Below, piece by piece: positions 7,521 through 39,394 of a DNA stretch of 44,566 nt. Location of the stretch: NCBI GenBank assembly GCA_002686995.1, contig NYZC01000102.1, positions 1 through 44,566 of the forward strand, written 5' to 3'. Origin of the DNA: Phycisphaeraceae bacterium. GTDB taxonomy: Bacteria; Planctomycetota; Phycisphaerae; Phycisphaerales; Phycisphaeraceae. Every line of letters starts with the position of its first letter. Position 1 is the first letter of the stretch. The position numbers and the translations under genes are program-made. The notes beneath the pieces are model-generated. The model saw only the letters and a list, made by a program, of their open reading frames with translations, was not told the origin of the DNA and made no database searches.

Positions 7521-8819
7521 TCATTCCTCGAGGTTCCATATCACCGCCGAGATCTGTCCAAGGCCAATGAAGTTCGCACCGGCATTCGGGTTGCTGATCA
7601 TGGGGCGCTGTTCCGGAGACAGACCGATTTCGCTCGTCCAGTAGTGAGGCAGACGCTCCGGCAGATCCGTCCAACTGCAGGTGATGTGGTGCATGAAGCA
7701 GGTGAGGAGGCGGCCGTCGTTCAGCACGACCGTGCGCGGGCTGTGCATGGAGGGATCGTTGCTGCGATAGATGATGTAGCGATTCAGCCAGTCCCATGTG
7801 CGTCCGTGGTCGGTGCTGACGACGGCTTCGTACCCGCGGTATATCCGCCCGTCCAGCTCGCCGATCCGGGCGGCGTGCGTCATGATCAGGCGACCGTCCG
7901 GCACCACCGTGATGTTGGCATGGACCCGGCCGAAACGGAAGAACGCCTGCGGCTCGGCCCAGGTCTCACCGTTGTCGGAAGACCACGTGGTGGAGATCGC
8001 CCGCCACCCGTCGTGCGGCGAGGGAATGTCGACCAGGTGGGTGCGCAGGCAGGCCACCAGGTCCCCATTCTTTGCTCTCACCACTGAAGATTCCGAGGTT
8101 CGCCATGCCTTGGGCAGGAGCCGGGGCTCGTCCCATGTTTCGGTGTCCGCGTGATACGTGCGAAGCAGTGACTGGCCCCCCATGGGCTCGGTTTCGGGCT
8201 GCGTCGATCCTTCCACGTAAAAGCCGAACGTCATCTCGGTCCCCTCGACCAGCGGTTGATAGGCCAGGTCGGTGTAGAGCTCACGTCCGTCGGGCAGATG
8301 CCCCACGGCCGAGCATTCGCCCCAGGTCTTGCCGCGATCGTCGCTGCGGCATAGCGAGTGCGTATGTGAATCGTCGTCGCCCCTGTAACCGCGAAGGATC
8401 AGCGTGTCCGGTCCCAGCGCGGGCACGGCCATCGGCGCGCAGCGCGACAGCGGGACCCGGTGCGGCGGGTGCCAATCCTCGCCCGATGGATCGCCCACGA
8501 ACAGAAGGCGGTCGCAGGCGTGCAGGTCATGAAGGTCCCGGGTGCGCACGGGCGCCGTCATCGTCAGCACGGGCGAGCCGTCGCCCATGATGTCCAGCCC
8601 GGGAAACTTGGGCAGGTTGACCAGGAAGGTGTAGGTGAGGCCCTCGAAGTAGTCCGGCCGGCCTTGGTCGCGGTTCCTGCGGATCGGATGCGGCGAGACC
8701 TCCGAGATGATGCGCGTCTTCGGGTAGAGCCCCTGGGCGTCGCGCTGCTCTCTTTCGTCGACCCATTCCGGATCGAGCGTCTGCAGCCTGCTGTTGAATG
8801 CTTCATCGAAGATCGGCAT
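7521..8819 (-). CDS. BNR/sialidase-like beta-propeller protein, cytoplasmic
   Basis: A 432-residue protein with three clear Asp boxes (S-x-D-x-G-x-T-W) at residues 159-166, 280-287 and 335-342, the mark of six-bladed sialidase-type propellers. I do not see a convincing arginine triad, so neuraminidase activity should not be assumed. There is no signal peptide. It is a paralogue of the secreted BNR protein at 16584-17909: both share TRIIS-x-VSP, a GY/LTYTFL-N-P-K-PGL block and a MHSP...GR-LT...MHH block. AAGGAAA eight bases before the second of two in-frame ATGs (8819) selects that start over 8825. It lies 39 bp after the preceding gene of the same - strand run. Confidence 0.7.
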   Translation of the reverse strand: MPIFDEAFNSRLQTLDPEWVDEREQRDAQGLYPKTRIISEVSPHPIRRNRDQGRPDYFEGLTYTFLVNLPKFPGLDIMGDGSPVLTMTAPVRTRDLHDLHACDRLLFVGDPSGEDWHPPHRVPLSRCAPMAVPALGPDTLILRGYRGDDDSHTHSLCRSDDRGKTWGECSAVGHLPDGRELYTDLAYQPLVEGTEMTFGFYVEGSTQPETEPMGGQSLLRTYHADTETWDEPRLLPKAWRTSESSVVRAKNGDLVACLRTHLVDIPSPHDGWRAISTTWSSDNGETWAEPQAFFRFGRVHANITVVPDGRLIMTHAARIGELDGRIYRGYEAVVSTDHGRTWDWLNRYIIYRSNDPSMHSPRTVVLNDGRLLTCFMHHITCSWTDLPERLPHYWTSEIGLSPEQRPMISNPNAGANFIGLGQISAVIWNLEE

Positions 8820-8858
8820 GATCATTTTCCTTGGCTCATAACCTAAAACTACCTGCCG

Positions 8859-16460: not shown

Positions 16461-16583
16461 GGCGATGAGATCCACGCGTGATTCATGTTCGCATCCGTGC
16501 GGGGCGGCGAGCGCTCTCGGGTACCATCTGAGTGGGTCCGGACAACACCGTCAAACAGAACCGTCAAACAGGAAGGAGCCACG

Positions 16584-17909
16584 ATGCTCAGCGATCGGTT
16601 GGGACCGGCCATGCTTGTCTTCGTTCTCGCCTCGCTGGCCGCGGCCGAGTCGCCGCTCAACGGCACGATCCAGGGCTCGGTCAACAAGGACAAGCTCACC
16701 AACTCCGTCATGCACACGCTGCCGCTCGACGCGGCCGTCGCCGACCACAGGACGGGCATGGACGGCCAGCAGCTTCCGACGCGCATCATCTCGACTGTCT
16801 CGCCGGTCGTCGTGCGGCAGAACGATCCGGACGGTCCGAAGTACCAGGAAGCGCTCGGCTACACGTTCCTGCTCAACTCGCCGAAGTATCCCGGGCTCTG
16901 CCGCATGGACGACGGCACGCTCGTGCTGACGCTGACCGCTGCGCTGTCGGGAGAGATCGTGGACGGTCCCGACGGCGTTCAGTTCGTCGACGAAAATACG
17001 CGCACGGACGTCATTCTCCATTCGAAAGACCAGGGCGCTTCATGGAGCCAGCCGCGCCGGATTCCGGGTTACCGCACGACCCCGATGAACCTTGGAGGCC
17101 GCCGCCTGATGATGCGCGGCTACACCAGCAAGAACGACGTCCCGGAAACCTACCACCTCTGGTTCAGCGACGATGCGGGCGCGACCTGGGGTGCGCCCGA
17201 ACGAATACCCGCGCTGCCTGACGGCAGCGACGTGATCACGGACGTCGCCATGAACTTTCCGCGCGAGGGCGACGTGATGCGCTTCATGTTCTTTCACAAG
17301 CCGACCAGACCCGACCGGACGGGAACGATCATGCGCCCGTACAACTTCGTCGAGCACAAGTGGGGTGACCCGACGTTCTTCCCGAGCAGCTTCCGCAGTT
17401 CGGAGGCATCACTGGCCCGCGCCACCAACGGGGATCTCGTGGGCGTGTTCCGTTCGGGCCGCGAGGGCATCCCCGCGCCGTCGGATCATTGGCGCGGCAT
17501 CGTGACGGGCTATTCGAACGATGACGGGAAGACATGGGCCGGCCCGTTCGTGCATTCACTTTACGGTCACGTGCACCACAGCCTGGTCGTGTTCCCCGAC
17601 GGGCGCATCCTCATGACTTTCGCTTCGCGCCTGGGCGAGTTCGACGGCCGGCTCTACCACGGTTGCGAGGCCGTGTTCAGCCACGATCACGGGCGCACGT
17701 GGGAGTGGGAACGGCGCTTCATCCTCTTTCGCTGGCCCGACGGCAGCATGCACAGCCCTCAGTCGGTACGACTCGACGACGGCAGGGTGCTCACCGTCAT
17801 CATGCATCACACGAGCTACACATGGCGCGACAAGCAGACGCACGGGAACCTGCTGGCGATGAGCCATGTGTCGGTGGTGATCTGGGAGCCGAGGCGAGGG
17901 AGTCATTAA
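16584..17909 (+). CDS. Secreted BNR/sialidase-like beta-propeller protein
   Basis: A 441-residue exported protein. The ATG at 16584 is preceded by AGGAAGGAG at ideal spacing and begins a signal peptide (MLSDRLGPAMLVFVLASLAA), so longer upstream frames can be dismissed. Four Asp boxes (S-x-D-x-G-x-(T/S)-W) are visible, at about 147-154, 195-202, 330-337 and 385-392, giving a sialidase-type propeller. It is a paralogue of the cytoplasmic protein at 7521-8819. It is divergent from the PhyH-like gene across 123 bp, where TACCAT at 16522-16527 could be a -10 box. Its stop codon overlaps that of the convergent gene in a shared TTAA. True sialidase activity is not supported by an identifiable arginine triad. 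Confidence 0.75.
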   Translation: MLSDRLGPAMLVFVLASLAAAESPLNGTIQGSVNKDKLTNSVMHTLPLDAAVADHRTGMDGQQLPTRIISTVSPVVVRQNDPDGPKYQEALGYTFLLNSPKYPGLCRMDDGTLVLTLTAALSGEIVDGPDGVQFVDENTRTDVILHSKDQGASWSQPRRIPGYRTTPMNLGGRRLMMRGYTSKNDVPETYHLWFSDDAGATWGAPERIPALPDGSDVITDVAMNFPREGDVMRFMFFHKPTRPDRTGTIMRPYNFVEHKWGDPTFFPSSFRSSEASLARATNGDLVGVFRSGREGIPAPSDHWRGIVTGYSNDDGKTWAGPFVHSLYGHVHHSLVVFPDGRILMTFASRLGEFDGRLYHGCEAVFSHDHGRTWEWERRFILFRWPDGSMHSPQSVRLDDGRVLTVIMHHTSYTWRDKQTHGNLLAMSHVSVVIWEPRRGSH

Positions 17910-19894
17910 TTTCCCCCCTCTACGCTGAGCGCGGCGCGCAATCCGTAGTCAGGCAAGGCGTAGTAGGGCGCGTATCCGCGATGGCGGAACGACGTGCGGA
18001 GATAGGGGGCCTTGCACAGGTAGGAGCCGCCCCGCAGGAAGTATTGCCATTGCGCCGCGTCATTGCCGGGTCGCCGGTCGCCGCCCGCGCACCACTCGAA
18101 GACGTTCCCGTACATGTCGTACAGTCCCCACGGGTTCGCGAGCTTTTCGCCGACCGGGTGCGTGCGGTTGTCGCTGTTCGGACTGTACCAGGCGTGTTCG
18201 CCGAGCCGGGACGGATCGTCGCCGAAGGAGAACGCGGTTCGGGTCCCGGCGCGGCACGCGTGCTCCCACTCGGCTTCCGTCGGAAGGCGCAGCCCGTGGC
18301 CTGCCTTCGCCAGGAACTTCTCGCAGCCCTCACGCATGAACCGTCCGACCACCGGGTGTCGTTCTCCCTGGAATCGCTCGGGTTTCCAGCCCCTGATGCT
18401 TTGCGCCGGGTTCTCGCCCATGATCTTCTTCCACTCGGCCTGGGTGACTTCGTATTTCCCCATGTAGAAGGGCTTGTCGACGGTCACCGTCCGAACCTCG
18501 CCGCGTTCGGATTCGGTCTGAAAGCGGCCCGCCGGAATGAACCGCATCGGCATGCCCGTCTTCTCATGGACGATCTCGAGCGCGTACCCGGTTTCCGAAT
18601 ACGGCTCGGCCAGCGTGTGGTCCTCGACCCGGAAGCCGGGTGGGACGCGCAAGGGCTTCATGCCGCGTTCCAGGGCTTTCCAGTAGACGCGCGGAATCCA
18701 TGAGTAGTGTTTGGTCTTGCCCACGACACCGTCCTCGAACCGGGCGTCCGGCGAGTCCAGCCACCACGAGGGGAACTCGGTGTAGATCCAGACGTATCCG
18801 TCGCCGTACTCGATCGCGTTACGCAAGGAGGTTTCGAGATAGTTGGGCGTGCGGTAGTTGTCTTCGGGTCGGTCGCCGTACCAGGCGTGATTGCCGTGGT
18901 AGTTGTACATGTCCATGTAGAGGCCGAACCCGACGCGCATCTTTCGGCGGTAGGCCTCGGGGACGAGCGTGTATTGCAACGCCTTCTCCGTGACCTTCTT
19001 CCGCAGTCCCATGAACGCATCACGGCCCCCGAACCGGTATGCGCCCTCGCAGCCGTCCACGAAGATCGTCTCGTCGTCGCTGGCCTCGAGCATGCCGTCA
19101 AGGAAGCGCGCGTAGACGCCGTTGTCCGAATCGGACAGGTCCGTGGTCTCATCGCGAAGCTGGATATGGCTGTAGGCGTACAGCGTCCAGACCAGGCAAC
19201 CCGGGAATCCCTTGTTCAGGGCCCGCGCGAACGACTGGCCGCGCCGGCGCGCCTGGGCCGACATCTGCTCCCATGTCGTGTCCTTGTAGTTGTCGAATCG
19301 TTTGAGCGCGTAGTCTTCTCTCGATCCGCCCCAGCTCCAGAAGGGGCTGCCGTACTCCTCGCAGTCGAGGACGATGCCCCGGAGCCCGCCCTCCCGCGCG
19401 ACGCGGGCCAGGCTCTCGATGTTGTGCAGCACCGTCGCCCAGCGCTCGTCGTCGAACCAGTCGAAATGGGCGCCTTTTCCAAGATAGGTCACGACCCACA
19501 GGAGATTGTCGCGACTGCGCGTGACCCTGGTCGCCTTCAGGTCTTCGATGGCGGCCGTGAGCATGTCGGCGCCGAAGCGCTTGCCCTGGAACGCCTCCCA
19601 GGAGACGCCATGGCCCGATCCCTGCTCGACGCATCCCTTCGGCGCGAAGGGCCACTTGTAGAGGTGCACCAACGTCCCGGTGAACGGGCGCTGCTCCCAC
19701 CGCGCGATGTGCTTGCGAAAGTACTTCACGTCCGGGGACGACCAGCCGAGACTGATCACCATCGGCGGATCCTGGCGCGGCCCCCATGCGTCGTCACCGA
19801 CGGCGGTCTGTGAGGCCATGAACGGCAGGGCCAGCAGGACGATCCGCATCGCGAAACCAGATTCACCGACAGAATGCTTCGGGTCATCAAGCAT
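17906..19894 (-). CDS. Secreted barrel + formylglycine-generating-enzyme-like (SUMF1) fusion, copy 1
   Basis: A 662-residue exported protein. After a long n-region and hydrophobic core (residues ~16-34), residues ~45-410 form a GH-like barrel with IVLDCEEYGS (D177, E179, Y181). Residues ~435-660 are an FGE-sulfatase domain (IVHEKTGMPMRFIPAG, YEVTQAEWKK, GLRLPTEAEWEHACRAGT, GLYDMYGNVFEWC, RGGSYLC). FGE oxidises a sulfatase cysteine to formylglycine using Cu(I) bound by two cysteines; here C627 is kept but the partner is L632, so classical FGE activity is doubtful. An open frame runs further upstream, but the copy-2 alignment fixes the start at 19894, with a GAGGG nine bases before. The sibling gene is 64 bp upstream. 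No sulfatase is in the window. Confidence 0.8.
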   Translation of the reverse strand: MLDDPKHSVGESGFAMRIVLLALPFMASQTAVGDDAWGPRQDPPMVISLGWSSPDVKYFRKHIARWEQRPFTGTLVHLYKWPFAPKGCVEQGSGHGVSWEAFQGKRFGADMLTAAIEDLKATRVTRSRDNLLWVVTYLGKGAHFDWFDDERWATVLHNIESLARVAREGGLRGIVLDCEEYGSPFWSWGGSREDYALKRFDNYKDTTWEQMSAQARRRGQSFARALNKGFPGCLVWTLYAYSHIQLRDETTDLSDSDNGVYARFLDGMLEASDDETIFVDGCEGAYRFGGRDAFMGLRKKVTEKALQYTLVPEAYRRKMRVGFGLYMDMYNYHGNHAWYGDRPEDNYRTPNYLETSLRNAIEYGDGYVWIYTEFPSWWLDSPDARFEDGVVGKTKHYSWIPRVYWKALERGMKPLRVPPGFRVEDHTLAEPYSETGYALEIVHEKTGMPMRFIPAGRFQTESERGEVRTVTVDKPFYMGKYEVTQAEWKKIMGENPAQSIRGWKPERFQGERHPVVGRFMREGCEKFLAKAGHGLRLPTEAEWEHACRAGTRTAFSFGDDPSRLGEHAWYSPNSDNRTHPVGEKLANPWGLYDMYGNVFEWCAGGDRRPGNDAAQWQYFLRGGSYLCKAPYLRTSFRHRGYAPYYALPDYGLRAALSVEGGN

Positions 19895-19958
19895 GCTCGG
19901 ACACCCTCGTGGGGAAAAGAAGCGTGTAGGACACACCGGGATGAGTCGACGACGGATC

Positions 19959-21947
19959 CTATTCCACGCTGCAGGCGGCGCGCAAGCCGTAAGCGGGAAA
20001 GGCGTAGTAGGGCGTGTAACCTCGATGGCGGAACGAGGTGCGGCAGTACGGCGCCTTGCTGTTCCAGGAGCCGCCCCGCAGGAAGTATTGCCATTGCGCG
20101 GCGTCGTTGCCGGGTCGCTGTTCGCCGCCCGCGCACCACTCGAAGACGTTGCCGTGCATGTCGTACAGCCTCCAGGCGTTCGGCAGCTTCTGCCCGACGG
20201 GATTCGGACCCTTGGTGTTGTCGATGTACCACGCGTGGTCGCCGAGCCGAGCCGGGTCGTCGCCGAATGACCAGGCGGTTTTCGTCCCCGCCCGGCACGC
20301 GTGCTCCCACTCGATCTCGGTCGGCAGGCGCAGGCCGCTGCCGGCCTCTTTGAGAAAGCGTTCGCAGTCCTCGCGACGAATCGCCCCGAGGATTGGGCGC
20401 TGATCCCCGAGGAATCTCTCGGGTTTCCAGATCTTGACCTTGTCCATGGGGTTCTCACCCATGACCTTCTTCCACACGGCCTGGGTGACTTCGTACTTCC
20501 CCAGGTAGAAGGGCTTGTCGACCGTCACGGTCCGGACCTCGCCGTTATCAGATTCGGTCTGAAAGCTGCCTGCGGGAATGAACCGCATCGGCATGCCCGT
20601 CTTTTCGTGGACGATCTCGACCGCGTAGCCGGTATCCGAATACGGTTCGGCGAGCGTGAGGTCCTCGACGCGGAAGCCGGGCGGGACGCCCAACGACTTC
20701 ATGCCACGTTCCAGGGCCTTCCAGTAGGCGCGCGGAATCCACGTGTAGTGTTTGGTCCTGCCCACCACGTCTTCTTCGAAGCGCGACTCGGGCGCGTCGA
20801 GCCACCAGGAGGGAAACTCGCTCCAGATCCAGACGAATCCGTCGCTGATCTCGAGCGCGTTGCGCACCGACGTCTCGATGTTGTCCGGCGTGCGGAAGTT
20901 GTCCTCGGGCCGGTCGCCGTACCAGGCATGGTTGCCGGGGTAGTTGTACATGTCCAGGTAAAGGCCGAACCCGAGACGCATCTTCCGACGGTAAGCATCA
21001 GGCACGAGCGTATATTTCAGCGCCGTCTCCTTGGCCTTCTTCCGCAGCTTGATGAACGCTTCACGATCCCGGTACCGATACGAGCCCTCGCTGCCGTCGA
21101 CGATGATCGTTTCGTCGTCGCTGGCCTCGAGCATGCCGTCGAGAAAGCGGGCATAGATATTGTTGGAGCCTTCGGACAGGTCCTCGTCCCCATCGAGAAG
21201 CTCGATGTAGCTGTACGCGTACAGCGTCCAGACCATGCAGCCCGGGTATCCCCTGTTCATGGCCCGCGCGAACGACTGACCGCGCCGGCGTGCCTGGGCC
21301 GACATCTGCTCCCATGTCCTGCCCTTGTAGGTGTCGAAGTTCTTCAGCGCGTAGTCCGGCCTGGGCCCACCCCAGCTCCAGAAGGGGCTTCCGTACTCCT
21401 CGGTGTCCAGGATGATGCCGCGCAGGCTGCCCTCCCGCGCGACCCGGGCCAGGCTCTCGATGTTGTGCAGGACCGTCGTCCAGCGCTCGTCGTCGAACCA
21501 GTCGAAATGACCTTTTCGAAGATACGACACCACCCACATGAAGTTGTCGCGACTGCGCGTGACCGGCGTCGCCTTCAGGTCTGCGATTGCGGTGGCGAGC
21601 ATTTCGGCGCCGAATCGCTTGTCCTGGAACACCTGCCAGGATATGCCGTGGGGGGATCCCATCTCGACGCACCCCGCCCGCGCGAATGGGTACTTGTAGA
21701 GGTGCACGGCCGTCCCGGTAAACGGGCGCTCCGCCCAACGCGCGGCGTGCCGGCGAAAGTACTGGACGTCCGGGCACGACCAGCCCATGCTGATCACCAT
21801 CGGCGGATCCTGGCGCGGCGCCTCCCACTTCTGCTCCGCGGCGACGGACTGGAAGCACGGTATCGAAACGACCAGAAAAAATGCCGACACCAGGACGTTC
21901 AACGCGAATCGACCGGACGGCGAGGCGGACTCGTGGTGTTGCTCCAT
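19959..21947 (-). CDS. Secreted barrel + formylglycine-generating-enzyme-like (SUMF1) fusion, copy 2
   Basis: Also exactly 662 residues and closely similar along its whole length to the downstream copy. The signal region includes ALNVLVSAFFLVVSIP. The barrel at ~50-415 has IILDTEEYGS; the FGE-like domain spans ~440-660. At the copper site it reads RGGSWNSKAPYC: the first cysteine is serine (S630) while the second (C635) is kept, the reverse of copy 1. No ribosome-binding site precedes the ATG; instead TAGATT lies six bases upstream (21954-21959), suggesting a leaderless transcript. The pair is clearly a tandem duplication. The barrel also resembles that of the CBM9-like fusion at 37431-39269. 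Role: probably an extracellular carbohydrate-active or glycan-binding protein; reaction unknown. Confidence 0.8.
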   Translation of the reverse strand: MEQHHESASPSGRFALNVLVSAFFLVVSIPCFQSVAAEQKWEAPRQDPPMVISMGWSCPDVQYFRRHAARWAERPFTGTAVHLYKYPFARAGCVEMGSPHGISWQVFQDKRFGAEMLATAIADLKATPVTRSRDNFMWVVSYLRKGHFDWFDDERWTTVLHNIESLARVAREGSLRGIILDTEEYGSPFWSWGGPRPDYALKNFDTYKGRTWEQMSAQARRRGQSFARAMNRGYPGCMVWTLYAYSYIELLDGDEDLSEGSNNIYARFLDGMLEASDDETIIVDGSEGSYRYRDREAFIKLRKKAKETALKYTLVPDAYRRKMRLGFGLYLDMYNYPGNHAWYGDRPEDNFRTPDNIETSVRNALEISDGFVWIWSEFPSWWLDAPESRFEEDVVGRTKHYTWIPRAYWKALERGMKSLGVPPGFRVEDLTLAEPYSDTGYAVEIVHEKTGMPMRFIPAGSFQTESDNGEVRTVTVDKPFYLGKYEVTQAVWKKVMGENPMDKVKIWKPERFLGDQRPILGAIRREDCERFLKEAGSGLRLPTEIEWEHACRAGTKTAWSFGDDPARLGDHAWYIDNTKGPNPVGQKLPNAWRLYDMHGNVFEWCAGGEQRPGNDAAQWQYFLRGGSWNSKAPYCRTSFRHRGYTPYYAFPAYGLRAACSVE

Positions 21948-21980: not shown

Positions 21981-22278
21981 GAATCGTTCGTCGCGACCGA
22001 CTGGAATCCATGTTGCTCCTCGCGGGTGCCTGGGGTCGAGCGCAGCGAGCCTCCAGCGGACGTCATGAGCACGTTGAGACACTGGTCGCTTGTCGCGTCG
22101 GGGCATTCGGCGTGACACTGGGCGCCCACAAGATCTTCCCCGGCCGTTTCGACTCGGCTGGTGCGCGTTTCGACGTTTCTCGTGGTTTCAAGCGTCGCGC
22201 CCTCGCTGGGGGCTCGCTGCGCTCGAGCCCAGGCCCCCGCGCATGAATCGTTCGTCACGACCGGCTAGAATCCATGTT
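21981..22278. repeat. Direct repeats enclosing an inverted repeat between divergent genes
   Basis: Two 34-bp direct copies beginning GAATCGTTCGTC lie at 21981-22014 and 22245-22278, with three mismatches. Between them an inverted pair at 22028-22058 and 22204-22234 (31 bp, core TCGAGCGCAGCGAG, about two mismatches) encloses ~145 bp. The arrangement of direct repeats outside inverted repeats is what insertion of a small element with target duplication leaves, although 34 bp is long for a target-site duplication. No transposase is present. Confidence 0.55.
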
Positions 22279-22290
22279 AGGAATCAAGCC

Positions 22291-23334
22291 ATGACCCGAT
22301 CCGACGAGTCGCTCAACGCTTTCGAAGCCGAAGAGCGATTGTGGCATGAATACCTCGAGGCGTATCGTCATCCGCCTCGCGATTTCGCCGGGGGCTTTCG
22401 ACCGCTGGGCGGATTCATCGCCGACTTTACGGTCGTCTGGCACGAGCAGCGCATGCACATGTTTCACATCGACCGGCGCCTCGGCGAGACCGAGTGCGCC
22501 TGGCCGGGGCACGAGATATTCATCGGGCACGCTTCGACCGGCGACCTGGTGAGCTGGGAGGTCCACGATCCGGTCCTTCTCATCCGGCCGGGGACCTGGG
22601 AGGGCTGTCATGTCGGGGCGCCCTACATCCAGCCTCACGACGGGCGTTACGTCATGGCGTACCAGGGCATCAACGAGGCGGGAAGCCAGAACCTGGGCCT
22701 GGCGTTCAGCGACGATTTGTTCGAATGGAAGCGGTCGCCGCACAATCCGATCAGCCCGCTCGCGCAGGCCGAGTGGGCGTTCTGGCGGAGCGACGGCACC
22801 GCCAGCTGCCGGGACGCTCACCTCAACTTCGTCGACGACCGATTCTGGCTGAACTTCACCGCCTGCACGCGCGAAGGGGGAACCTGCATCGCCATGGCCA
22901 GCAGCAGTGACCTGGTGACGTGGAACGATCACGGGCCGATCATCGACGGCGGCTCCGATCGGAACGCCGACGACGAATCGGCGCCGTTTCACCACGTGCA
23001 CCACATCGAGTCGAGCGCCCTGATTCCCCACGAGGGTCACTGGTTGCTGTTCGGCATCGATCGTGACGGCATCCATTACTGGGAAAGCCCGACGATGGAT
23101 CGATTCGACTACGCGCAGGGAAAGCCACTGTGGAAGGACGTGGGGCCGGGCGAAGTGGCATGGCGAGACGGATCGCGGTGGCTCATGTGCGCCTGCCATT
23201 ATGAAGACGGCTACGGCGTGCCGGGTTCCGTACTGCGCTTCGGTGAGATCGACTGGTCCGATGCCGAACCCGAGGTGAGGATGATCACGGGCGAGTCGCG
23301 TATTGCGGACTGGGTCCGCAGGATCAAGACATGA
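22291..23334 (+). CDS. GH43/GH32-like five-bladed propeller protein
   Basis: A 347-residue soluble protein without a signal peptide. The pattern of short aromatic strands (GGFIADFTVVWHEQRMHMFH, HASTGDLVSWEVHDPVL, GLAFSDDLFEWKRSPHNPI, MASSSDLVTWNDHGPII, HYWESPTMDRFDY) is the repeated 'S-D-L-x-x-W' blade motif of the five-bladed propellers of GH43, GH32 and related families. The exact family and catalytic acids cannot be fixed by eye. The ATG at 22291 follows a weak GGA; TAGAAT at 22266-22271 could be a -10 box. Its TGA overlaps the next gene's ATG (ATGA), so the two are translationally coupled. Confidence 0.65.
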   Translation: MTRSDESLNAFEAEERLWHEYLEAYRHPPRDFAGGFRPLGGFIADFTVVWHEQRMHMFHIDRRLGETECAWPGHEIFIGHASTGDLVSWEVHDPVLLIRPGTWEGCHVGAPYIQPHDGRYVMAYQGINEAGSQNLGLAFSDDLFEWKRSPHNPISPLAQAEWAFWRSDGTASCRDAHLNFVDDRFWLNFTACTREGGTCIAMASSSDLVTWNDHGPIIDGGSDRNADDESAPFHHVHHIESSALIPHEGHWLLFGIDRDGIHYWESPTMDRFDYAQGKPLWKDVGPGEVAWRDGSRWLMCACHYEDGYGVPGSVLRFGEIDWSDAEPEVRMITGESRIADWVRRIKT

Positions 23335-26300
23335 GCCGACGGGATTCGTCCAGACGCGAGCGGGCCGCGATCGACTGGCGGGTCGCGTGGAGCATCGTGA
23401 TCGTGCTCGGCCTCGGCGCCTATTACGGGTACCAGTTCTACATGCGGGCCCAGGAACGGAAGACGGTTGCGCTCGTGAAGAGCATCGTGGAGCCGGAGGA
23501 GCTGATCGGCAGGCTGATGCCGCGATTGCGGCACCTGGACCAGGCGGCGCTCAACCTGCAGGTGCCCGACCACGACGCGCGACAACTCTTCGCCGATGAA
23601 GTTCGCGTCCGCGACCTGGCGCCGAACGCCCCGGCGCCGGCGGCCGGGAGCGACGTCCTCGAGACGCGACTGGCGCCCTGGCCCGTGACCGACGCCGAAG
23701 CATCGCGATCGATCGATACCGCGCCGATCTGGCGCGGATACCTCTCGTCGATCGAGTCCTTCGAGCACGCGCATTTCTACATCGTGCGCGGCCGCCTGGC
23801 GTCGGACGGAACCCTCGAAACGGACATGGGCTTCACGGGACTCGCCCGAACCTCGTCCGGTGCCCTCGAGGCCGTCCACGCCCGGCAGCAGGTCGTCTGG
23901 ACGCGCACGCGCGCCGAAAAGGACCCGTGGCGCATCACCACCTGGCGGCAGGGGAAATTCGAGCGACGACTGCGCGAATCAGCGATGTTCCGCGAATCGC
24001 TCGACCTCGCGCTGCAGGATCCGCGCGACCTCGAACGTGCCCGCACGTCGCGTCACGCGAAGCTCGCCCTGAAGTTCGCGCAGGGAAAGCGGTTCATGTT
24101 GCCGGACAAGGTGCACACCGCAGTGTTCGATACCGCGTCCACGCTGCAGCATCCCGGCCTATCGGTGGTGGATGTCGACGGCGACGGGCTGGATGACCTG
24201 TACGTCATGCCCCGCTGGGGCAGCAACCTGCTGCTGCATAACCAGGGCGGCGGTCGATTCAGGGAGCGGGCCGCCGACTTCGGCCTGGATATCCGTGCGG
24301 CCTCGACCAGTGCGATATTTGCCGACTTCGACAACGACGGCGATCCGGACCTTTGGCTCGGGCGCAGCGTCAAGCCAAGCATGTACCTGGTCAACGAAGA
24401 CGGTCGATTCGTCGACCGGTCCTCGACGCACGTGTCGATCAGCATGCCGTACCTGGTGGTGTCCATGTCCGCGGCGGACTACAACGGCGACGGCCTGCTC
24501 GACGTGTACCTGGCCCGATACGCGCTCTCCCCGGCGACGCCCGACTCGAGCTGCGAACTTATGAGCGCGGAGCATTGCGCGGAGCTCGAGCGCCGCACCG
24601 GCGCCATGATCATCTCGGATCGATTCTTCAACGATCCTGGTCCGCCGAACCTGCTGCTCGAAAACCAGGGCGGTGGACGATTCGCGCCCAGCGCACGGAG
24701 CCGCCAGGTCGCGCCGTGGTTCAACTCGTTCCAGGCCACGTGGTCCGATTTCGACGATGACGGCGACCCCGACCTGTACGTCACCAACGATTTCGCCCCG
24801 GACAACCTGTATCGCAACGACGGTCCGGCGGGCTTCGTGGACGTGACGGCGAACTACGGCGGCGAAGCGATGACGGGATTCGGAATGGGCGCGTCGTGGG
24901 GCGACTACGACAACGACGGCCGACACGACCTGTACGTGTCCAACATGTACAGCAAGGCGGGCCTGCGCATCACCGGACAGATCGACAGGCTCGACCGGCG
25001 GTTTCGCCACCATGCGGCCGGCAACGTGCTGCTTCGCAACGCCGGCGCGCAGTTCGACGCGGTATCCGGTCTCGAACCGCCGGCGTTGACGGTCGCGAAG
25101 GCCGGTTGGGCGTGGGGCGGCCAGTTCGTGGACGTCGACAACGACGGATTCCTCGATATCTACGTCACGAACGGTTACTACACGGCGCCCTGGCAGGTGG
25201 ACAGCCTGGCCGACATGTGAAGTGCGTTCTGGCGCACGGTCGTGCGCGTCGATACCGAGATGCCGCCGCTCTTCCGCGGATCGACCGCGTGGAAGATCAA
25301 GTTCGACAACGAGACGTTCACGCCGGAGGACGCACGGTCCTCTTTCAGCGGCCATGAGCGCAACCACCTGTTCGTCAACCACGGTGGCGAACGTTTCAGC
25401 GACCTCTCGACCGTCTCCGGTCTCGACGCCGATCGCGACGGCCGCGCGTTCGTGATCTGGGATTACGATCGCGACGGCCGCCAGGACATCGCGCTGGTCA
25501 ACGCCAACGCGCCGCTGCTGAACCTGTATCGCAACGAGATTGGTGGCGCCAATCGAATGATCGCACTGCGCTTCGTCGGGGCCAACCACACGGACCAGCC
25601 GGCGCAGGAAGCCGCCTGCCGTGATGGATACGGCGCCGTGGCGGAAGTGGCGCTCGGCGACATGACGCTCAAGCGCGAGCACCGGTGCGGCGAGGGATAC
25701 GCGGCCCAGAACAGCCGCACGATGATCGTAGGTATCGGTCGGCACCAGAAGGCGCAGCACGTGCAGATACGCTGGCCGTCCGGAAAGACGACGCGAATCG
25801 AAGATGTCGCCGCGGGCACGCTGCTGACTTGTTTCGAAGACGAGGCGACCTCACCGCGCGCCGCGAGCTTCCACCAGGAGTCCTACCTGGCCGACGCGAG
25901 CAGTACGTCGTCAGCGGCACCGCCACGTCACCTGACGCGCTTCGCGTCCGATCCGGCACCCGACGCCGGTTCCCGGCTGCGCCTGCTGATGACGATGGCG
26001 ACCTGGTGCGTGGCGTGCAGCGAACGGAAGCCTCAACTCGAACTGCTCCGCAGCCGGTTCGACCCGGCCGAGCTTGCGCTGTTCGGACTGCCCGTCGACC
26101 CGTCCGACACGCGCGCGAAGCTCGGCGCGTACATGAATCAGTTCACGCCTCCCTATGAGCTGCTGTACGACCTGACCAGCCGGCAGCGTCGCGAAGTCGA
26201 GCAACTGCTTTCCGAGACGGGGCACGAGGAGACCATTCCGTCCAGCATCGTCATTGACGGGAGCGGGGCAGTGCTGCGCGTGTTTCCGGGGGTGCCCACG

Positions 26301-26348
26301 GTTTCGGAGGTGAGGGTGCTTTTACGCGAGGAGGAGGGGGAGAATTAA
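23331..26348 (+). CDS. FG-GAP propeller + UnbV/ASPIC + thioredoxin protein, with in-frame TGA (candidate selenoprotein or pseudogene)
   Basis: Read through the TGA at 25218-25220, this is one 1,005-residue frame. Residues ~18-42 are a membrane anchor (VAWSIVIVLGLGAYYGY). Six Ca-binding FG-GAP loops (DxDxDGxxD) follow, between about residues 282 and 620. Codon 630 is TGA, then SAFWRTVV, and a seventh FG-GAP loop (DYDRDGRQD) completes a seven-bladed propeller. An UnbV/ASPIC domain comes next (GYAAQNSRTMIVGIG, IRWPSGKT), then a thioredoxin-like domain with WCVAC. The stop thus splits a conserved CRTAC1-type fold, yet the downstream 375 codons stay open and conserved in pattern. Readings: selenocysteine insertion (a hairpin follows), a nonsense mutation, or a sequence error. 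GTG 25242 could restart translation but has no ribosome site. The start overlaps the previous stop (ATGA). Confidence 0.7.
25218..25247 (+). promoter_or_regulatory. UGA codon with SECIS-like hairpin
   Basis: The TGA at 25218-25220 is followed, after 11 nt, by a perfect 6-bp stem GCGCAC (25232-25237) / GTGCGC (25242-25247) closing a GGUC tetraloop (25238-25241). The loop starts 17 nt after the UGA. Bacterial SECIS elements need a G in the first two loop positions and roughly 16-37 nt between UGA and loop; E. coli fdhF has a GGUC loop 18 nt after its UGA. A bulged U in the stem, as in fdhF, is not evident. A competing 5-bp hairpin (25224-25228 with 25233-25237) exists. Whether the genome has selA/B/C/D is unknown. 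Confidence 0.45.
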
Positions 26349-26352
26349 GCTA

Positions 26353-27708
26353 TCAGCTTGATTGCTGCGTCGCCAGGTCCGGATCGCAGTCGGCCAGCCA
26401 TTCATCGGTAAGGAACTTGCCCAGCAGGAAGTGCTTGCGGTCGGGATAGAAGAGGATGCGCTCGTTGTCGTCCTCGAGCAGGCTGGGATAGGAGCCGGCG
26501 TCGCGCCGCCCGGCGACGCCGATGGGTGCGCCATCCGTGTTGATCAGCACTTTGGGCGGGCCGAATCGCAGGCCGCGCGCGGGGTGTGCCTCGTCTTCGC
26601 GTCCGATGCTCGCGAACGCGGGCCAGCGGTTCTCGCGCCAGCATTCGAAGCGGCACGGAAAGTGCCCGCCGTTGGCGTCACCGTTGTTGTTGCAGTAGAG
26701 CAGCAGAAAGCGACCATCGCGCATCCGGTAGAGCGGCGCCGGGGTGACGGGGTGCAGCATCAGGGGCCCCCCGTGATCCCGGTAGACCGGGGCAGGCGGA
26801 CTCCATGTCCGGCTGCGATCGTTCGACATCGAGAACGACAGGAAGCCGGCGTCGGTCCGCATGACGCAGTAGAAACGTCCGTCGGAAAGCTCGACCAGCG
26901 CCGGCTCCTCGCAGAACGACTCCTTCGGATCGATGGCGCTCGGCACGCGCAGGCCGCGCGCGCTTTCCGGGAACGTCGTCGTGGTCAGAAGCGCAGGGTC
27001 GCGCTCCGTCAGGATGTTGTCGAACCGCATGAAATAGGATTCGCTGCCGGGACCGGCGGGGGAGTGCGCCGAATTCCAGCAGGTGAACGGCGCGATGATC
27101 TCGTCAAGGTCGGTGCGCAGCGGTGTCTGCCAGATGATCCAGGAGACGGGGATCGCCTGGTCCGGGTTGTCGCCGCACGTTCTTTGCAGGGGGATCTCGT
27201 AGCGATCGTCGCTCCAGGTGACGCCGTCGTCGTCGCTGTACCGGCAGAGCAGCGCGCCGCTGATGTCATATCGAAAGTCCGCGACGCCCGTGCATTTCCA
27301 GTAGAAGCAATAGACGCGGCCCATCTCGGGCACCACCACCGGAAAGCCCCACGAAGCCATCCCCGCGTGGTCCTTCGCGGCTTCATCGCTCAACGCGGCG
27401 GCGCGCCACACGCGGTCACGGTTGATCGGCGCCCGAAAGTTCGGATCCATTTCGGTCGCACGGCCGTCGACGATCGCGGGCGCCGTCCACGTGCGACCGC
27501 GGTCGGTCGAACGCGCCACGACCACGGACTGGTTGGGCTGCCCCTCGTCGGCGCCCATCGTCCAGAAGGCAAGCCACGCGCCGCCCGGGGCCTTCACCAC
27601 GAGCAAGTGCTGGTTGGCGGAGTCGTGCCCGTTCTCGCTGTCGGGGAGGTAGACGACCAGGTCGGGGCCGGTCCGTTTCCATTCTTCGGCGTACGCAATC
27701 TGTCCCAT
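26353..27708 (-). CDS. BNR/sialidase-like propeller protein
   Basis: A 451-residue protein without signal peptide. Asp boxes appear as ARSTDRGRTWTAP, RYSDDDGVTWSDD and a degenerate SMSNDRSRTWSPP, the hallmark of sialidase-type propellers. Cysteine is frequent for a propeller (for example CFYWKC, FPCRFECW). It is more distant from the other two BNR proteins of the window than those are from each other. It ends four bases from the convergent FG-GAP/thioredoxin gene. The ATG has no ribosome site, but TAGAAT stands six bases before it (27715-27720), suggesting a leaderless message. Substrate and catalytic activity are unknown. Confidence 0.65.
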   Translation of the reverse strand: MGQIAYAEEWKRTGPDLVVYLPDSENGHDSANQHLLVVKAPGGAWLAFWTMGADEGQPNQSVVVARSTDRGRTWTAPAIVDGRATEMDPNFRAPINRDRVWRAAALSDEAAKDHAGMASWGFPVVVPEMGRVYCFYWKCTGVADFRYDISGALLCRYSDDDGVTWSDDRYEIPLQRTCGDNPDQAIPVSWIIWQTPLRTDLDEIIAPFTCWNSAHSPAGPGSESYFMRFDNILTERDPALLTTTTFPESARGLRVPSAIDPKESFCEEPALVELSDGRFYCVMRTDAGFLSFSMSNDRSRTWSPPAPVYRDHGGPLMLHPVTPAPLYRMRDGRFLLLYCNNNGDANGGHFPCRFECWRENRWPAFASIGREDEAHPARGLRFGPPKVLINTDGAPIGVAGRRDAGSYPSLLEDDNERILFYPDRKHFLLGKFLTDEWLADCDPDLATQQSS

Positions 27709-35166: not shown

Positions 35167-36999
35167 TCACTCGTCGCTGAATTGCAGCGTTCCGAACCGT
35201 GCAGGCGAGTGGAAGCCGCCATAGGTCGGGCTCCAGGCGGCACCGTCGGGGGAGAACCGATAGAAGTTCGCGCCCCAGAAGTCGCCCGCCGCCGGCGGGC
35301 GCGCCAGGGGCTCGAACGGGATGCGCACCTCGACGACATACCGGCCGCCGCCGTGCATGGCGGCCGCACTGACGTCGGCATTCCACGACGGCGAACCGTA
35401 CTTGCCGGTGCCGCCGTCGATGTCGACCAGCAGATCGGTCACGTCCGCGAGCGCCGAGACCATGAACTGCGCATAACGACGCGTCGAGCGGTCGGGGGCG
35501 ATGAAGATCTCGACCCCGTCGAATTGCCAGATGGCGGTGTTGTCGCGGCCGCGCTGAGGCACGTTCACGGTGGTCTCGCCTTCGGGCATCTGCGCCTCGA
35601 ACGCGACGTAAAGGGCCGCGGCGTCCCAGCACACGCGCACCGCCGTATCGCGCGTCGCGACCTCGCCGAATCTTGTAGTGGGCATCGTCACGCGCGCGGC
35701 GCGTTGCCACGCGGGTTCGTCAAGTTCGCCGTCAACCGATATCTCCCCCCGGCGCCTCGGCACCTCGACCTGCGGTGGCGCGGGCACGGCCGGCATCTTC
35801 GGCCACTGGTTCGGATCGGTGCCGATCAGCGCGTCGAGCCGGGCGTGCGTCTCCGTGAGCCTGTCGTGGTATTCGATGGCCGTCGTGCCTTTGACGCGCC
35901 CGTACGGGCTCTTGTAGGCGTCGGGCTCGTCCGTGCCGACCTGGGTCATCAGGGCAGTGCCGTACCAGGCCCACCAGCCGTCACCGTAGAGCGCACCCCG
36001 CAGCGCGTTGCCGGCCAGCATGTCCGGATCCTGATGCTGGATCATGAGTCCGCTCAGGTAGATCGCGGGGATTCGATCCGTCCTGATGCGCTGCACGTTC
36101 GCGAGCGTCTGCGGGCTGGGGCCATTCGTGTACTCCTGCTCGGAGAAAACGAGGCACGGGTTGTGAGGGGTGCCCAGTCCCCGCGTCAGCCCGGCGAAGC
36201 TGTCGAGAAACGGCGCGTAGCCGAGCAGGAACGCCGGGTTGATCGCCTGGCAGCGGGCGCGGATGCGATCGTAGAGGTCCTCGACACGACCCGTCTGGTA
36301 CCGGTTGTACGTTTCGGCCTGGCCCCTGTTGTTGATCCAGTTGCCGGGATGCTCCGGCATGTGACCCCGGATCGCCAGATCGTGGTCCTCGAGATATTGG
36401 CGGAAACAGTCATCGCAGAAACACGGTCCGGGATAGGTCGTCGTGTCCGACTCGTACATCTCGGTGTCGAAGACGAACCCGTCGGCGCCAAGCCGCGCGC
36501 ATTCGACGGCCCATCGCCCCACGTGTCGATCCACATAACCCGCGTCCAGCGGACAGCACGTCGTTTCGTGGAACTTTCCGCCGCCTTCGCGGTACTTGCG
36601 ATACGGTTCCAGATGCGTCGAGCCGTACTGCCACTTGGCGAGCAACTTCAGACCGTGCTGACGGGCCACGGCCAGGTTTCGCCGCAGGCGGTCGGCCAGG
36701 TGGGGGGATCGTTCGCGGTCATTGCGATCGACGCCGGTGTACAGCACCACGAGATTGAATCCCGCGTCCGCGAGGACGCGGCCCTTGGTCTTGTCGCTGT
36801 CGCCGAAGGGATCGTCCAGATCGCCGCCGATCCAGATTCCGCGCACCTTTCGCTCCTGGAGCCAGTTCAGATCCGGGTGCAGCGCGTCATCGGGTTCCGA
36901 GGCGGTCGGCGCGTCGATGGTTCGACATGACGGCGCGACGATCACGAGGAGCGCGATTCCGATGAGGGGCGAGAACGCTCTCGAATTCATGGCGAACAT
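35167..36999 (-). CDS. Lipoprotein-like GH-type barrel + CBM9-like protein
   Basis: A 610-residue exported protein. The start at ATG 36999 gives a hydrophobic leader ending VIVAPSCRT, a plausible lipobox; ATG 36990 is nearly as good. Residues ~50-400 are a barrel with FVFDTEMYES (D178, E180, Y182) and CFCDDCF (C193, C195, C198), matching the secreted propeller-fusion protein at 2303-5668. The last ~180 residues are a CBM9/DOMON-like sandwich (ISVDGELDEPAWQRAARV, DGVEIFIAPD, GRYVVEVRIPFEPL, GDFWGANFYRFSPDG), a domain common in outer-surface proteins that bind sugars at reducing ends. Probably a cell-surface glycan-acting lipoprotein; the reaction is unknown. Confidence 0.72.
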   Translation of the reverse strand: MFAMNSRAFSPLIGIALLVIVAPSCRTIDAPTASEPDDALHPDLNWLQERKVRGIWIGGDLDDPFGDSDKTKGRVLADAGFNLVVLYTGVDRNDRERSPHLADRLRRNLAVARQHGLKLLAKWQYGSTHLEPYRKYREGGGKFHETTCCPLDAGYVDRHVGRWAVECARLGADGFVFDTEMYESDTTTYPGPCFCDDCFRQYLEDHDLAIRGHMPEHPGNWINNRGQAETYNRYQTGRVEDLYDRIRARCQAINPAFLLGYAPFLDSFAGLTRGLGTPHNPCLVFSEQEYTNGPSPQTLANVQRIRTDRIPAIYLSGLMIQHQDPDMLAGNALRGALYGDGWWAWYGTALMTQVGTDEPDAYKSPYGRVKGTTAIEYHDRLTETHARLDALIGTDPNQWPKMPAVPAPPQVEVPRRRGEISVDGELDEPAWQRAARVTMPTTRFGEVATRDTAVRVCWDAAALYVAFEAQMPEGETTVNVPQRGRDNTAIWQFDGVEIFIAPDRSTRRYAQFMVSALADVTDLLVDIDGGTGKYGSPSWNADVSAAAMHGGGRYVVEVRIPFEPLARPPAAGDFWGANFYRFSPDGAAWSPTYGGFHSPARFGTLQFSDE

Positions 37000-37430
37000 C
37001 GTATCGGTCCCGGCAATTGACGTACTCGCTCCGGCCGCGAGCCGGGCCGTCACGGCCCGGATCCTCCCGTTACTCGCAGTAATCGTTTGATTCGTAGCGG
37101 AAATCGCCAGACTTCAGATATCCATTGCGCGAGTGAACGTTTTCCGAAGTGTGGCCAAGTCGGCTACGCTGCGGTGATCATGGTTCAGCGTCCCCCTCAG
37201 GACATCATGGCCAGCCTCCCGAAGCATTATCGATCGGACGCGCCGCACGAGTGGACGAAATCCGGCGTCAACGCCGCCGAAACATCGCCGACGGGACGGG
37301 AGATCGGACAGTTCGTGGGCGCGATCATCGGCGGCGACCTGGGGTCGTCCGGCGGATGTCGCAGCGGAAACCCGAACTTCTGGGCTTGGGCATCAACTAC
37401 GCATCGCCTCTGCACTTCGCCGTGCATGAG
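37000..37430. other. 431-bp intergenic region
   Basis: Lies between two - strand genes. A + strand frame from 37087 to 37449 encodes 120 residues with no recognisable motif and overlaps the end of the next gene; other frames are no better. I see no repeat, terminator with T-run or RNA gene. It presumably carries the promoter of the lipoprotein gene at 35167-36999. Confidence 0.35.
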
Positions 37431-39269
37431 CTATCGAAAGGTCAGGTAGCCGAAGTTTGTCGGTTCGACGAAGCCCTCTGCGACCGGGGACCAGGTGCAG
37501 AACTCCCCGGCGGTGCCGGCGCGCCGGGCGCGGCAGAGATTGACGCGCAGAGTCGTGCCCGGTGACGGCGGTTCCATTCCCATTTCCGACCAGGACACGG
37601 CCAACTCGACGTCCCAGGCACCGGCGGTCTTCGTCACGGCGCTTCGCCACCGGCCATCGAACGAGGCCGGATCGTTGCCGCGGCCGTCCCACCGTACGTT
37701 GTTCGGATTGACGATGAAGTGATGGAAGGGCTCCGGGGCCGATCCGATCGAAAGGAAGACGTCGACGGAATCGCCCTCCCAGACGGCATCGTCGGGCTCG
37801 ACGCCATGCGCGCGCAGCCGCGTCATGAACGGCTCGATACAGCGAAAGGCGACGTAGAGATGCTCGGCGTCGCAGGTGATCCAGGCGCGCGTTTCCGCAT
37901 CGGGGTCGAACTGGGTGCCTCGCATGACGAATCTCCCGATGCGCAACGCGTTGCTCCACGCATCGTCGCTCAGATCACCATCGACGCTCGGTGGCGCGTC
38001 GCCTGGCGCCAGGCTCGTCACGTTTGCCCGTCGATGCTGACGATCGGGCGGCGCGTCCGCTTCAGTCGAGAGGTTGCGCAGCAGCCGGGGATCGCGGCCG
38101 GCGATCCGATCCCGGGCGTTGCGCATGGCGTCGTTGATTCCGTGGGGCAGCTTACGGAGGCGCGGCGGCCACCAGAACCAGTCCTCGTTGTAGATCCATA
38201 CGTACTCGTCGCTCGTCATCAGAGCGTGGTAGACGATCCTCTCGAACTGCCGGGCCTTGTTCTCGGGAGCCGCCTCGCCTCGAAACGTCTTCTGCAGGAA
38301 CAGCCCATGGCCGACCTGCACCTGCGTCTGATACCTGGCCCGATTCTCCGGCGAGATCAGCCGTCCCGTGCTCTGACTGATCATGTGGTAGGCCTCGAAG
38401 AACTCGATGGGCGTGCGATACTTGTACGCCGCTTCATTGCCGTCGACGATCGTCATGCCGGGGCGGATGCCGTCGAGCATGCCTTCGAGGAACGCCGGGA
38501 GCAGGGCGTATTCGGTCGCCGTCAGGGCTGCGGACACGTCCGGCGCGTGAAACGCGTCGACCTTGTTGGCCGGGTAGCTGGCGAGGATCAGGCAGAGCAC
38601 GACGGCCCGGGGCATCTTGCGGCCGATCGTCTCGATGAACTGGCGTCCGCGGAGTCGTGACTGCGCGGCAAAGCGCTCGAACTTGCCGGGGTCCTTGCGC
38701 AGCGCGGCAGGCCGCCACAGGGGCGCCATCCTGTCCTTCAGCGTGTAGATCTCGGGATCGAAGATCACGCCCTTGCAGCCGACGATGTTGGCCGCATCAA
38801 GGTTGAGGGCCACGTTGTGCATGGCGATTTGCCAGTGGTCGTCATCGAACCAGTCCAGCGTCCCGGGCGCGGCGTTGATCACGATGAAGTTGTCGGTGAA
38901 CTTCTCGAAGCGAACGTGTCGCAGGTCCTCGTAGTCCGCGGCCAGCCACGCTTCTTCGATCCGCTCCGGCCGGAACGCGTAGAACGCGGCGGCGCTGCCG
39001 GATCCGGGTACGCGTCCCTTGACGCGAAAACCGATTCCGTCGAACGGGTCCTGCTCCATCTGCCGGTGGTTCTGCCTCAGTTCGGCTGCGTCCGGCACCC
39101 CCCAGCCGTACTGGATCAGCTTCTTCGGGCGGGACTGGCCTGCCGGCGGCATCACCGGGTCCGCGGCCGAAGAACTCGTCCGCGCGCAGCCGCACGGTAC
39201 GGTCAGGAGCGAGAGCACCGTCATCAGTCCGACACGGGATATTTTGCGTCGCAAGATCATTCGAATCAT
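37431..39269 (-). CDS. Lipoprotein-like GH-type barrel + CBM9-like protein
   Basis: A 612-residue exported protein. ATG 39269 (preferred to a GTG ten codons upstream) gives a leader with hydrophobic core VGLMTVLSLLTVPCGC. The barrel (~48-410) resembles that of the two FGE-like fusions: KLIQYGWGVPDAAELRQ versus their M(V)ISLGWSSPDVKYFR, LDWFDDDHWQIAMHN versus FDWFDDERWATVLHN, and MTIVDGNEAAYKY versus ETIFVDGCEGAYRF. Its signature is VIFDPEIYTL (D171, E173, Y175). The C-terminal ~190 residues are CBM9-like (PSVDGDLSDDAWSNALRIG, EGDSVDVFLSIG, VELAVSWSEMG). So one barrel type is joined here to a binding domain, elsewhere to an FGE-like domain. Function unknown, probably extracellular glycan metabolism. 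Confidence 0.72.
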   Translation of the reverse strand: MIRMILRRKISRVGLMTVLSLLTVPCGCARTSSSAADPVMPPAGQSRPKKLIQYGWGVPDAAELRQNHRQMEQDPFDGIGFRVKGRVPGSGSAAAFYAFRPERIEEAWLAADYEDLRHVRFEKFTDNFIVINAAPGTLDWFDDDHWQIAMHNVALNLDAANIVGCKGVIFDPEIYTLKDRMAPLWRPAALRKDPGKFERFAAQSRLRGRQFIETIGRKMPRAVVLCLILASYPANKVDAFHAPDVSAALTATEYALLPAFLEGMLDGIRPGMTIVDGNEAAYKYRTPIEFFEAYHMISQSTGRLISPENRARYQTQVQVGHGLFLQKTFRGEAAPENKARQFERIVYHALMTSDEYVWIYNEDWFWWPPRLRKLPHGINDAMRNARDRIAGRDPRLLRNLSTEADAPPDRQHRRANVTSLAPGDAPPSVDGDLSDDAWSNALRIGRFVMRGTQFDPDAETRAWITCDAEHLYVAFRCIEPFMTRLRAHGVEPDDAVWEGDSVDVFLSIGSAPEPFHHFIVNPNNVRWDGRGNDPASFDGRWRSAVTKTAGAWDVELAVSWSEMGMEPPSPGTTLRVNLCRARRAGTAGEFCTWSPVAEGFVEPTNFGYLTFR

Positions 39270-39394
39270 GGTAAGTGCAATTGCTGACAGGAGAGCCACG
39301 TCCCGGGCCGCTCTGCTTCAGACTCCGCCGGCACGAACACGGTACGATCTGGGCGTTGCACTACCGCTCTCACCTTTGATCGGATGACTCATCG

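What the first reader, a model, noticed from the sequence alone, without database searches (positions are those of the whole stretch)
25218..25220. In-frame TGA splits an otherwise intact FG-GAP/UnbV/thioredoxin gene: possible new selenoprotein
The frame that opens at 23331 meets TGA at codon 630, then stays open for 375 more codons in the same frame. Six FG-GAP blades lie before the TGA and the seventh, needed to close a seven-bladed propeller, lies after it, as do the UnbV/ASPIC domain and a thioredoxin domain with WCVAC. The context DM-[TGA]-SAFWRTVV falls where CRTAC1-type proteins have a conserved D-x-x-S-(F/Y)-(F/Y)-W-R-like segment (my recollection). No frameshift and no decay of downstream coding pattern is seen, which argues against an old pseudogene. 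A TGA from a recent nonsense mutation or sequence error remains possible.
Basis: partly seen in the sequence, partly recalled or inferred. Interest (0 to 1): 0.85.

Follow-up and report, generated by a model that had tools for sequence, protein, structure and literature searches.

The report
Unlisted selenium-containing beta-propeller protein family
A bacterial gene that standard annotation cuts short at an internal TGA shares that TGA, and an RNA hairpin just after it, with over a hundred relatives, so it likely makes a selenium-containing propeller protein of a kind missing from the inventory we read.

Summary
Frame 23331-26345 has one TGA (25218-25220) and is open on both sides. A 6-bp hairpin with loop GGUC (25232-25247) has its loop 17 nt after the TGA, as the bacterial SECIS model asks; of 1118 TGA triplets in the window only this one has so good a hairpin. 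The column is TGA in 64 of 64 top profile-found rows (60 distinct genes) and in 103 of 111 matches to a pattern that left the codon free, in Planctomycetota, Verrucomicrobiota and Acidobacteriota. A synonymous Arg base covaries with its hairpin partner (112 of 115). tRNA-Sec is in 67 of 72 genomes with TGA members, 164 of 320 others. Sense homologues lose the CxxC of the fused TlpA-like domain (kept in 142 of 147 TGA rows, 15 of 126 sense rows; 12 independent pairs). No such family is in a 2026 inventory of 119. Against: selA, selB and selD were not found in the window's own incomplete genome, the global RNA fold prefers another pairing, and nothing was tested in protein.

The parts
23331..26348 (+). 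whole gene, read through TGA: 1005-residue predicted selenoprotein, TAA stop 26346-26348
25218..25220 (+). in-frame TGA, codon 630, predicted selenocysteine
   Evidence: same column TGA in relatives
25232..25237 (+). 5' arm of SECIS-like hairpin, GCGCAC
25238..25241 (+). apical loop GGUC, 17 nt after the TGA
   Evidence: bSECIS model from PMC13188914
25242..25247 (+). 3' arm of SECIS-like hairpin, GTGCGC
24156..25556 (+). FG-GAP beta-propeller (residues about 276-742); the TGA codon lies at the start of a predicted helix between two strand groups
   Evidence: Pfam; AlphaFold2; CRTAC1 match
25626..25829 (+). UnbV/ASPIC domain (residues 766-833)
25974..26291 (+). TlpA/ResA-like thioredoxin domain (residues 882-987)
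26007..26018 (+). CxxC of that domain (C893-V-A-C896), kept in TGA members and mostly lost in sense homologues
   Evidence: position read
23382..23444 (+). hydrophobic N-terminal stretch (residues 18-38), likely membrane anchor
   Evidence: read by eye; helix 16-74

Best explanation
The gene at 23331-26348 is predicted to make one 1005-residue selenoprotein: the UGA at 25218-25220 is likely decoded as selenocysteine by tRNA-Sec and SelB, directed by the hairpin at 25232-25247. The protein would be anchored in the inner membrane by its N-terminus, with a CRTAC1-type propeller, a UnbV domain and a TlpA-like thioredoxin domain outside the cytoplasm (location inferred). Residue 630 lies in the first turn of a predicted helix (629-639), which from general knowledge is a usual place for a redox-active residue. 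I infer that it is the catalytic centre of the propeller and is brought back to the reduced state by the CxxC of the fused thioredoxin domain, which in turn would be reduced by a DsbD/CcdA-type donor. Shown: the conserved TGA, the covarying hairpin, the tRNA-Sec link, and the joint loss of selenocysteine codon and CxxC. Inferred: insertion of selenium, location, direction of electron flow. Unknown: the substrate.
For: Conserved TGA: 64 of 64 top profile-found rows (60 distinct genes, the window's included) and 20 of 20 distant rows picked for having a TGA, all at the one column; 103 of 111 pattern matches with the codon left free. Hairpin: synonymous-codon randomisation gives so good a hairpin in 5% or less of draws for 58 of 68 profile-found TGA members but for 2 of 21 non-TGA homologues; the window's own value is 4.4%; third base of the Arg codon pairs with the first base of the codon 10 nt on in 112 of 115 (shuffles, which ignore relatedness: mean 93.0, highest 103 in 20,000; CGA only with T, 48 of 48; CGC only with G, 6 of 6). 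Machinery: own tRNA-Sec; selB over cut-off in 21 of 25 and selA in 20 of 25 genomes with family matches; tRNA-Sec in 67 of 72 genomes with listed TGA members against 164 of 320 others, p 2e-12. Redox relay: CxxC in 142 of 147 TGA rows against 15 of 126 sense rows, a CxxC in 11 of 225 further sense homologues; 12 independent pairs on the tree, about 8.6 in step and 0.0 against, median p 0.004. Model pLDDT 86.5, residue 630 at the start of helix 629-639.
Against: selA not found, selB and selD only below cut-off in the window's own genome; G069, the genome with most family matches, also lacks selA and selB over cut-off; five of 72 genomes with TGA members show no tRNA-Sec. The global fold of the 50 nt from the TGA prefers another pairing (z -0.91); the hairpin comes out when the first 11 nt, which a ribosome would cover, are left out. 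18 of 68 profile-found TGA members miss the -7.5 kcal/mol limit in my strict bulge-free count. Cys is rare at the column, and 6 of 7 Cys homologues lack the CxxC. A few TGA members lack the CxxC (5 of 147). An earlier, smaller tree test was not significant (4 in step, 0 against, p 0.125). A contact of residue 630 with the CxxC was not tested: the tool gives no coordinates. No protein data.
Confidence: 0.85

Rival explanations
1. Selenocysteine is made, but as a metal ligand or structural residue; the thioredoxin domain only keeps it (and other thiols) reduced for metal loading, as TlpA does for a copper site of cytochrome oxidase (recalled; entry 4txv is a TlpA-oxidase subunit pair).
For: Glu and Asp are the commonest replacements, fitting a ligand; the nearest solved thioredoxin domains are TlpA and ResA.
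Against: Ala, Ser, Asn, Gln, Arg and Gly also occur.
Confidence: 0.25
2. The UGA is a selenium-dependent switch: the 629-residue product is itself functional and the long form is made only when selenium is at hand.
For: A metagenomic relative, 81% identical over the shared half, is held as a 639-residue protein ending at the same codon (P0003); gene callers would cut there in any case.
Against: The short form lacks a further FG-GAP-like repeat (just under cut-off) and the propeller strands after residue 675; CxxC and TGA stay together.
Confidence: 0.06
3. UGA is read as another amino acid (changed code or suppressor tRNA) without selenium.
For: The frame is open beyond it.
Against: 9 of 11 large ORFs picked in the window end in TGA; as a rule one TGA per member, at one column, with a SECIS-like hairpin and a link to tRNA-Sec.
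Confidence: 0.02
4. Recent nonsense mutation or sequencing error in an ordinary gene.
For: None beyond the TGA itself.
Against: Three paralogues in the same genome and genomes of three phyla have TGA at the same column.
Confidence: 0.005

Closest known systems
CRTAC1 / UnbV-ASPIC family (murine CRTAC1, PDB 9etn)
   Different: No selenocysteine is described there as far as three searches went; the thioredoxin domain and membrane stretch are extra.
Bacterial selenoproteins with bSECIS (formate dehydrogenase and others, inventory in PMC13188914 Table 1)
   Same: In-frame UGA, hairpin with G in its loop 16-37 nt on, tRNA-Sec.
   Different: None of the 119 listed families or subfamilies is an FG-GAP/UnbV propeller (Table 1 read); here Cys homologues are rare and many copies occur in some genomes.
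TlpA / ResA thiol-disulfide oxidoreductases
   Same: Thioredoxin fold and CxxC.
   Different: Fused to a propeller; below the curated NCBIfam cut-off for TlpA (21.7 of 230 bits).
ResA-like WAxxUGC selenoprotein (NF041054)
   Same: Weak match to the thioredoxin part of four of the six proteins scanned, not of the window's own.
   Different: At most 47.2 of 300 bits; by its name the Sec there sits in the thioredoxin motif, not in a propeller.

Membership tests
Bacterial selenoprotein | In-frame UGA at a column that is UGA or Cys in homologues | tested here: met
   UGA widely, Cys in 7 of 343 sense homologues
Bacterial selenoprotein | bSECIS: loop of 3-9 nt with G in the first two places, 16-37 nt after UGA, stem 4-16 bp | tested here: met
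   loop GGUC, 17 nt, 6 bp; model from PMC13188914
Bacterial selenoprotein | bSECIS free energy -7.5 kcal/mol or lower | tested here: met
   -11.0 for the hairpin alone, -9.4 by my strict count; competing global fold
Bacterial selenoprotein | tRNA-Sec in the genome | tested here: met
   70 bits, cut-off 47; ARAGORN tca
Bacterial selenoprotein | selA, selB, selD in the genome | tested here: inconclusive
   not found over cut-off in G000, 87.6% complete; selA and selB in kin G018 and G031
Bacterial selenoprotein | Selenocysteine found in the protein | not testable with these tools
   needs mass spectrometry or 75Se labelling
CRTAC1 / UnbV-ASPIC family | FG-GAP propeller plus UnbV_ASPIC domain | tested here: met
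TlpA (NF047696) | Curated score cut-off | tested here: not met
   21.7 of 230 bits: TlpA-like domain, not filed as TlpA
Any of the 119 listed prokaryotic selenoprotein families | Same domain with Sec at the same motif | tested here: not met
   Table 1 of PMC13188914 read; NCBIfam scan, nothing over cut-off for the window protein

The most novel reading that the evidence does not exclude
FG-GAP/UnbV propellers are a selenoprotein superfamily that has been overlooked because hardly any homologue has Cys at the position: in many Planctomycetota, Verrucomicrobiota and Acidobacteriota it is the main use of selenium, with up to 29 family matches in one genome, and the Sec works together with a thioredoxin on the same chain; when Sec goes, the thioredoxin active site decays.
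Probability: 0.65. Interest if true: 0.9.

Novelty: new variant of a known kind. Interest (0 to 1): 0.83.

Why it matters
Methods that look for TGA/Cys pairs miss selenoproteins without Cys homologues; the deep-Sep paper says so of its own method (passage). Here such a family would be large, spread over three phyla and cut short by ordinary gene callers. It would put selenium into a beta-propeller kind that includes CRTAC1, and it gives a testable link: Sec in the propeller, CxxC on the same chain. Genome annotation of these phyla would need correction, and the selenium demand of such bacteria would be larger than counted.

Tried and rejected
Global RNA fold of the 50 nt from the TGA: hairpin not in the minimum-energy fold; kept as evidence against. 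Rfam scan of the window: nothing over cut-off. selA/selB/selD in the own genome: by my reading the best selB match is EF-Tu (401 aa open frame next to a weak tRNA-like hit) and the selD match lies among frames that look like hypF, hypC and hypD, so likely HypE (read; names recalled); both set aside. First tree test of joint loss: 4 against 0, p 0.125, not significant; repeated with more sense homologues, median p 0.004, range 0.002-0.039; in that set rows over 60% alike were merged only if both traits agreed, the tree is a quick one (LG+G4), the sense rows are search hits and not a random draw, and the CxxC call is a simple motif. Extra TGAs at +195 and +196 in L247 and L246 look like the genes' own ends and were not counted as Sec. 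Five TGC pattern matches (L044, L050, L059, L090, L120) have stops on both sides and are no homologues; L053 (CTG) and L113 (TCG) look like chance; L046 (ATG) is a homologue.

Literature: selenoprotein with FG-GAP gave 2 papers, neither on it by title and abstract start; selenocysteine with CRTAC1 2, likewise; selenoprotein with UnbV 0; selenoprotein with Planctomycetota 10, listing seen, passages of one read. The wider searches showed only the top of longer lists and prove no absence. The library holds open papers only. Table S9 of PMC4807772 (selenoprotein candidates of two Planctomycetes) could not be read, so an earlier listing there cannot be ruled out.

Searches list only part of their rows; one search scored 3 candidates a genome, so its counts are low. 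The 25 genomes were picked by me: three of the window's family and 22 behind pattern loci, one of them (L053) a chance match whose genome still has family members. The 72 genomes were taken by hand from the listed rows, and the five without tRNA-Sec by hand; I take the two draws of 392 to be the same. The profile A2 was built from six TGA members, which favours TGA rows at the top; the 20 no-stop and 20 distant rows were chosen by hand for those properties. Four genes among the 64 rows were fetched twice. Of the 29 matches in G069, 23 are in the listed rows, each with a TGA, some cut by contig ends.

Full report

The hairpin. After the TGA the mRNA reads AGUGCGUUCUG, then GCGCAC-GGUC-GUGCGC (25232-25247). 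Loop position (17 nt after UGA), loop make-up and stem length fit the bacterial SECIS model quoted in PMC13188914 (passages); the hairpin alone has -11.0 kcal/mol. Of 1118 TGA triplets on both strands of the window only this one has so good a hairpin at that place, and 0.14% of 89,012 positions do. Against this, the global fold of the 50 nt prefers a pairing with the nucleotides right after the TGA; a ribosome at the UGA would cover those (inference), and without them the hairpin is the best fold.

Relatives. A search of 61 related genomes with the read-through protein gave 6 matches in 3 genomes, 4 of them in the window's own genome; all six have exactly one TGA, at this column, with GGTC 17 nt on. 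The 80 titles seen name mostly Verrucomicrobiota, Planctomycetota and Acidobacteriota. A profile of the six found 185 matches in 25 genomes at 1e-60, 1 to 29 a genome (the sum is mine); every listed row but one (G077:C22, TAA) has a TGA. The column check with the profile gave TGA in 64 of 64 top rows (60 distinct genes, the window's included) and in 20 of 20 distant rows picked for having a TGA; 20 rows picked for having no stop have E 6, A 4, Q 3, R 3, N 2, D 1, S 1. Among 118 homologues close to the window protein the column is E in most and C in one, P0004; among 225 further ones D 91, E 70, S 18, N 13, A 12, C 6 and others. The window's genome is of the Planctomycetota, because G154 of its phylum draw and G077 (a MAG titled Planctomycetota, L093) have the same match coordinates (inference).

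Selection on the RNA. Randomising synonymous codons gives an equal or better hairpin in 5% or less of draws for 58 of 68 profile-found TGA members and for 2 of 21 non-TGA homologues; the window's own value is 4.4%. In 115 members with W-R-Q-V-V/L/M the free third base of the Arg codon pairs with the first base of the codon 10 nt on in 112; shuffles, which ignore relatedness, give a mean of 93.0 and a highest value of 103 in 20,000. CGA goes only with T (48 of 48), CGC only with G (6 of 6), CGG with C or T (57 of 58). Protein constraint does not explain why a synonymous base follows a Ser, Pro or Ala choice. Distant members keep a hairpin with other sequences, such as CGCCAC-GUG-GUGGCG. In my strict bulge-free count 50 of 68 TGA members and 4 of 21 non-TGA homologues pass -7.5 kcal/mol.

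Machinery. The own genome has tRNA-Sec at 70 bits, 97 bases from the end of a 7662-base contig. selA was not found, selB and selD only below cut-off. Of 25 genomes with family matches, 21 have selB and 20 selA over cut-off; G000 and G069 have neither. G018 and G031, of the window's family and with a TGA member each, have both. In 392 Planctomycetota genomes, tRNA-Sec is in 67 of 72 with listed TGA members and in 164 of 320 others, odds ratio 12.7, p 2e-12.

Function. TGA rows keep both cysteines of the thioredoxin CxxC in 142 of 147 cases, sense rows in 15 of 126; sense homologues show decayed forms such as FATSSPDC; of 225 further sense homologues 11 have a CxxC there. On a quick tree of 143 rows the Sec label changes at least 12 times on starred branches; in 12 independent pairs the CxxC goes the same way in about 8.6 and the other way in 0.0, median p 0.004. 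An earlier tree with fewer sense rows gave 4 against 0, p 0.125. I read this as a redox partnership of Sec and CxxC on one chain; direction, substrate and location are inferred. Six of seven Cys homologues lack the CxxC, so Cys does not simply stand in for Sec.

Novelty. The 2026 review PMC13188914 lists 119 prokaryotic selenoprotein families or subfamilies; I read its Table 1 and searched its main text: no FG-GAP, UnbV, ASPIC, VCBS or CRTAC1. Passages of the deep-Sep paper PMC12013277, of PMC9312934, of the Secmarker paper PMC5330540 and of the ocean survey PMC2398784 do not show it either. Searches of selenoprotein with FG-GAP, UnbV or Planctomycetota and of selenocysteine with CRTAC1 listed nothing on it. 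NCBIfam of June 2026 has nothing over cut-off for the window protein. The supplementary selenoprotein table of PMC4807772, on two Planctomycetes with sel genes, was not readable (passages of the main text only).

Noticed in passing
L241 (G101:C78:23960-26220), 1072-1149: A member with three in-frame TGAs: the family column, +21 and +25 (DAL-U-AEA-U-GHL), and a second hairpin whose loop region begins about 17 nt after the third TGA. The rows of the ten other genomes that matched it have at most one TGA each. Possible triple selenoprotein, one genome only.
   Followed up: partly
L077, second member on the - strand, position 2129 of the reverse complement: Arg on both hairpin arms is replaced, and the stem is kept by matching changes on both sides (GAGCAC-GGTC-GTGCTC).
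   Followed up: partly
P0160, P0272, P0280, P0298, P0301, P0310 and P0004: The few homologues with Cys at the Sec column; all but P0004 lack the CxxC.
   Followed up: partly
window 17906-20458 and 19959-21947, - strand: Two frames with overlapping coordinates, each with an FGE-sulfatase domain, near BNR-repeat proteins (7521-8825, 16485-17909, 26353-27708) and CBM9-domain proteins (35167-37053, 37431-39299).
   Followed up: no
window 22090-23334, + strand: Upstream gene with a GH32 N-terminal domain match, overlapping the selenoprotein gene by ATGA: likely one operon.
   Followed up: no
G069 (genome of L051; L052 and L067 bear the same isolate name): 29 family matches in one 9.2 Mb MAG but no selA or selB over cut-off: incomplete or mixed bin, or divergent machinery.
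   Followed up: no
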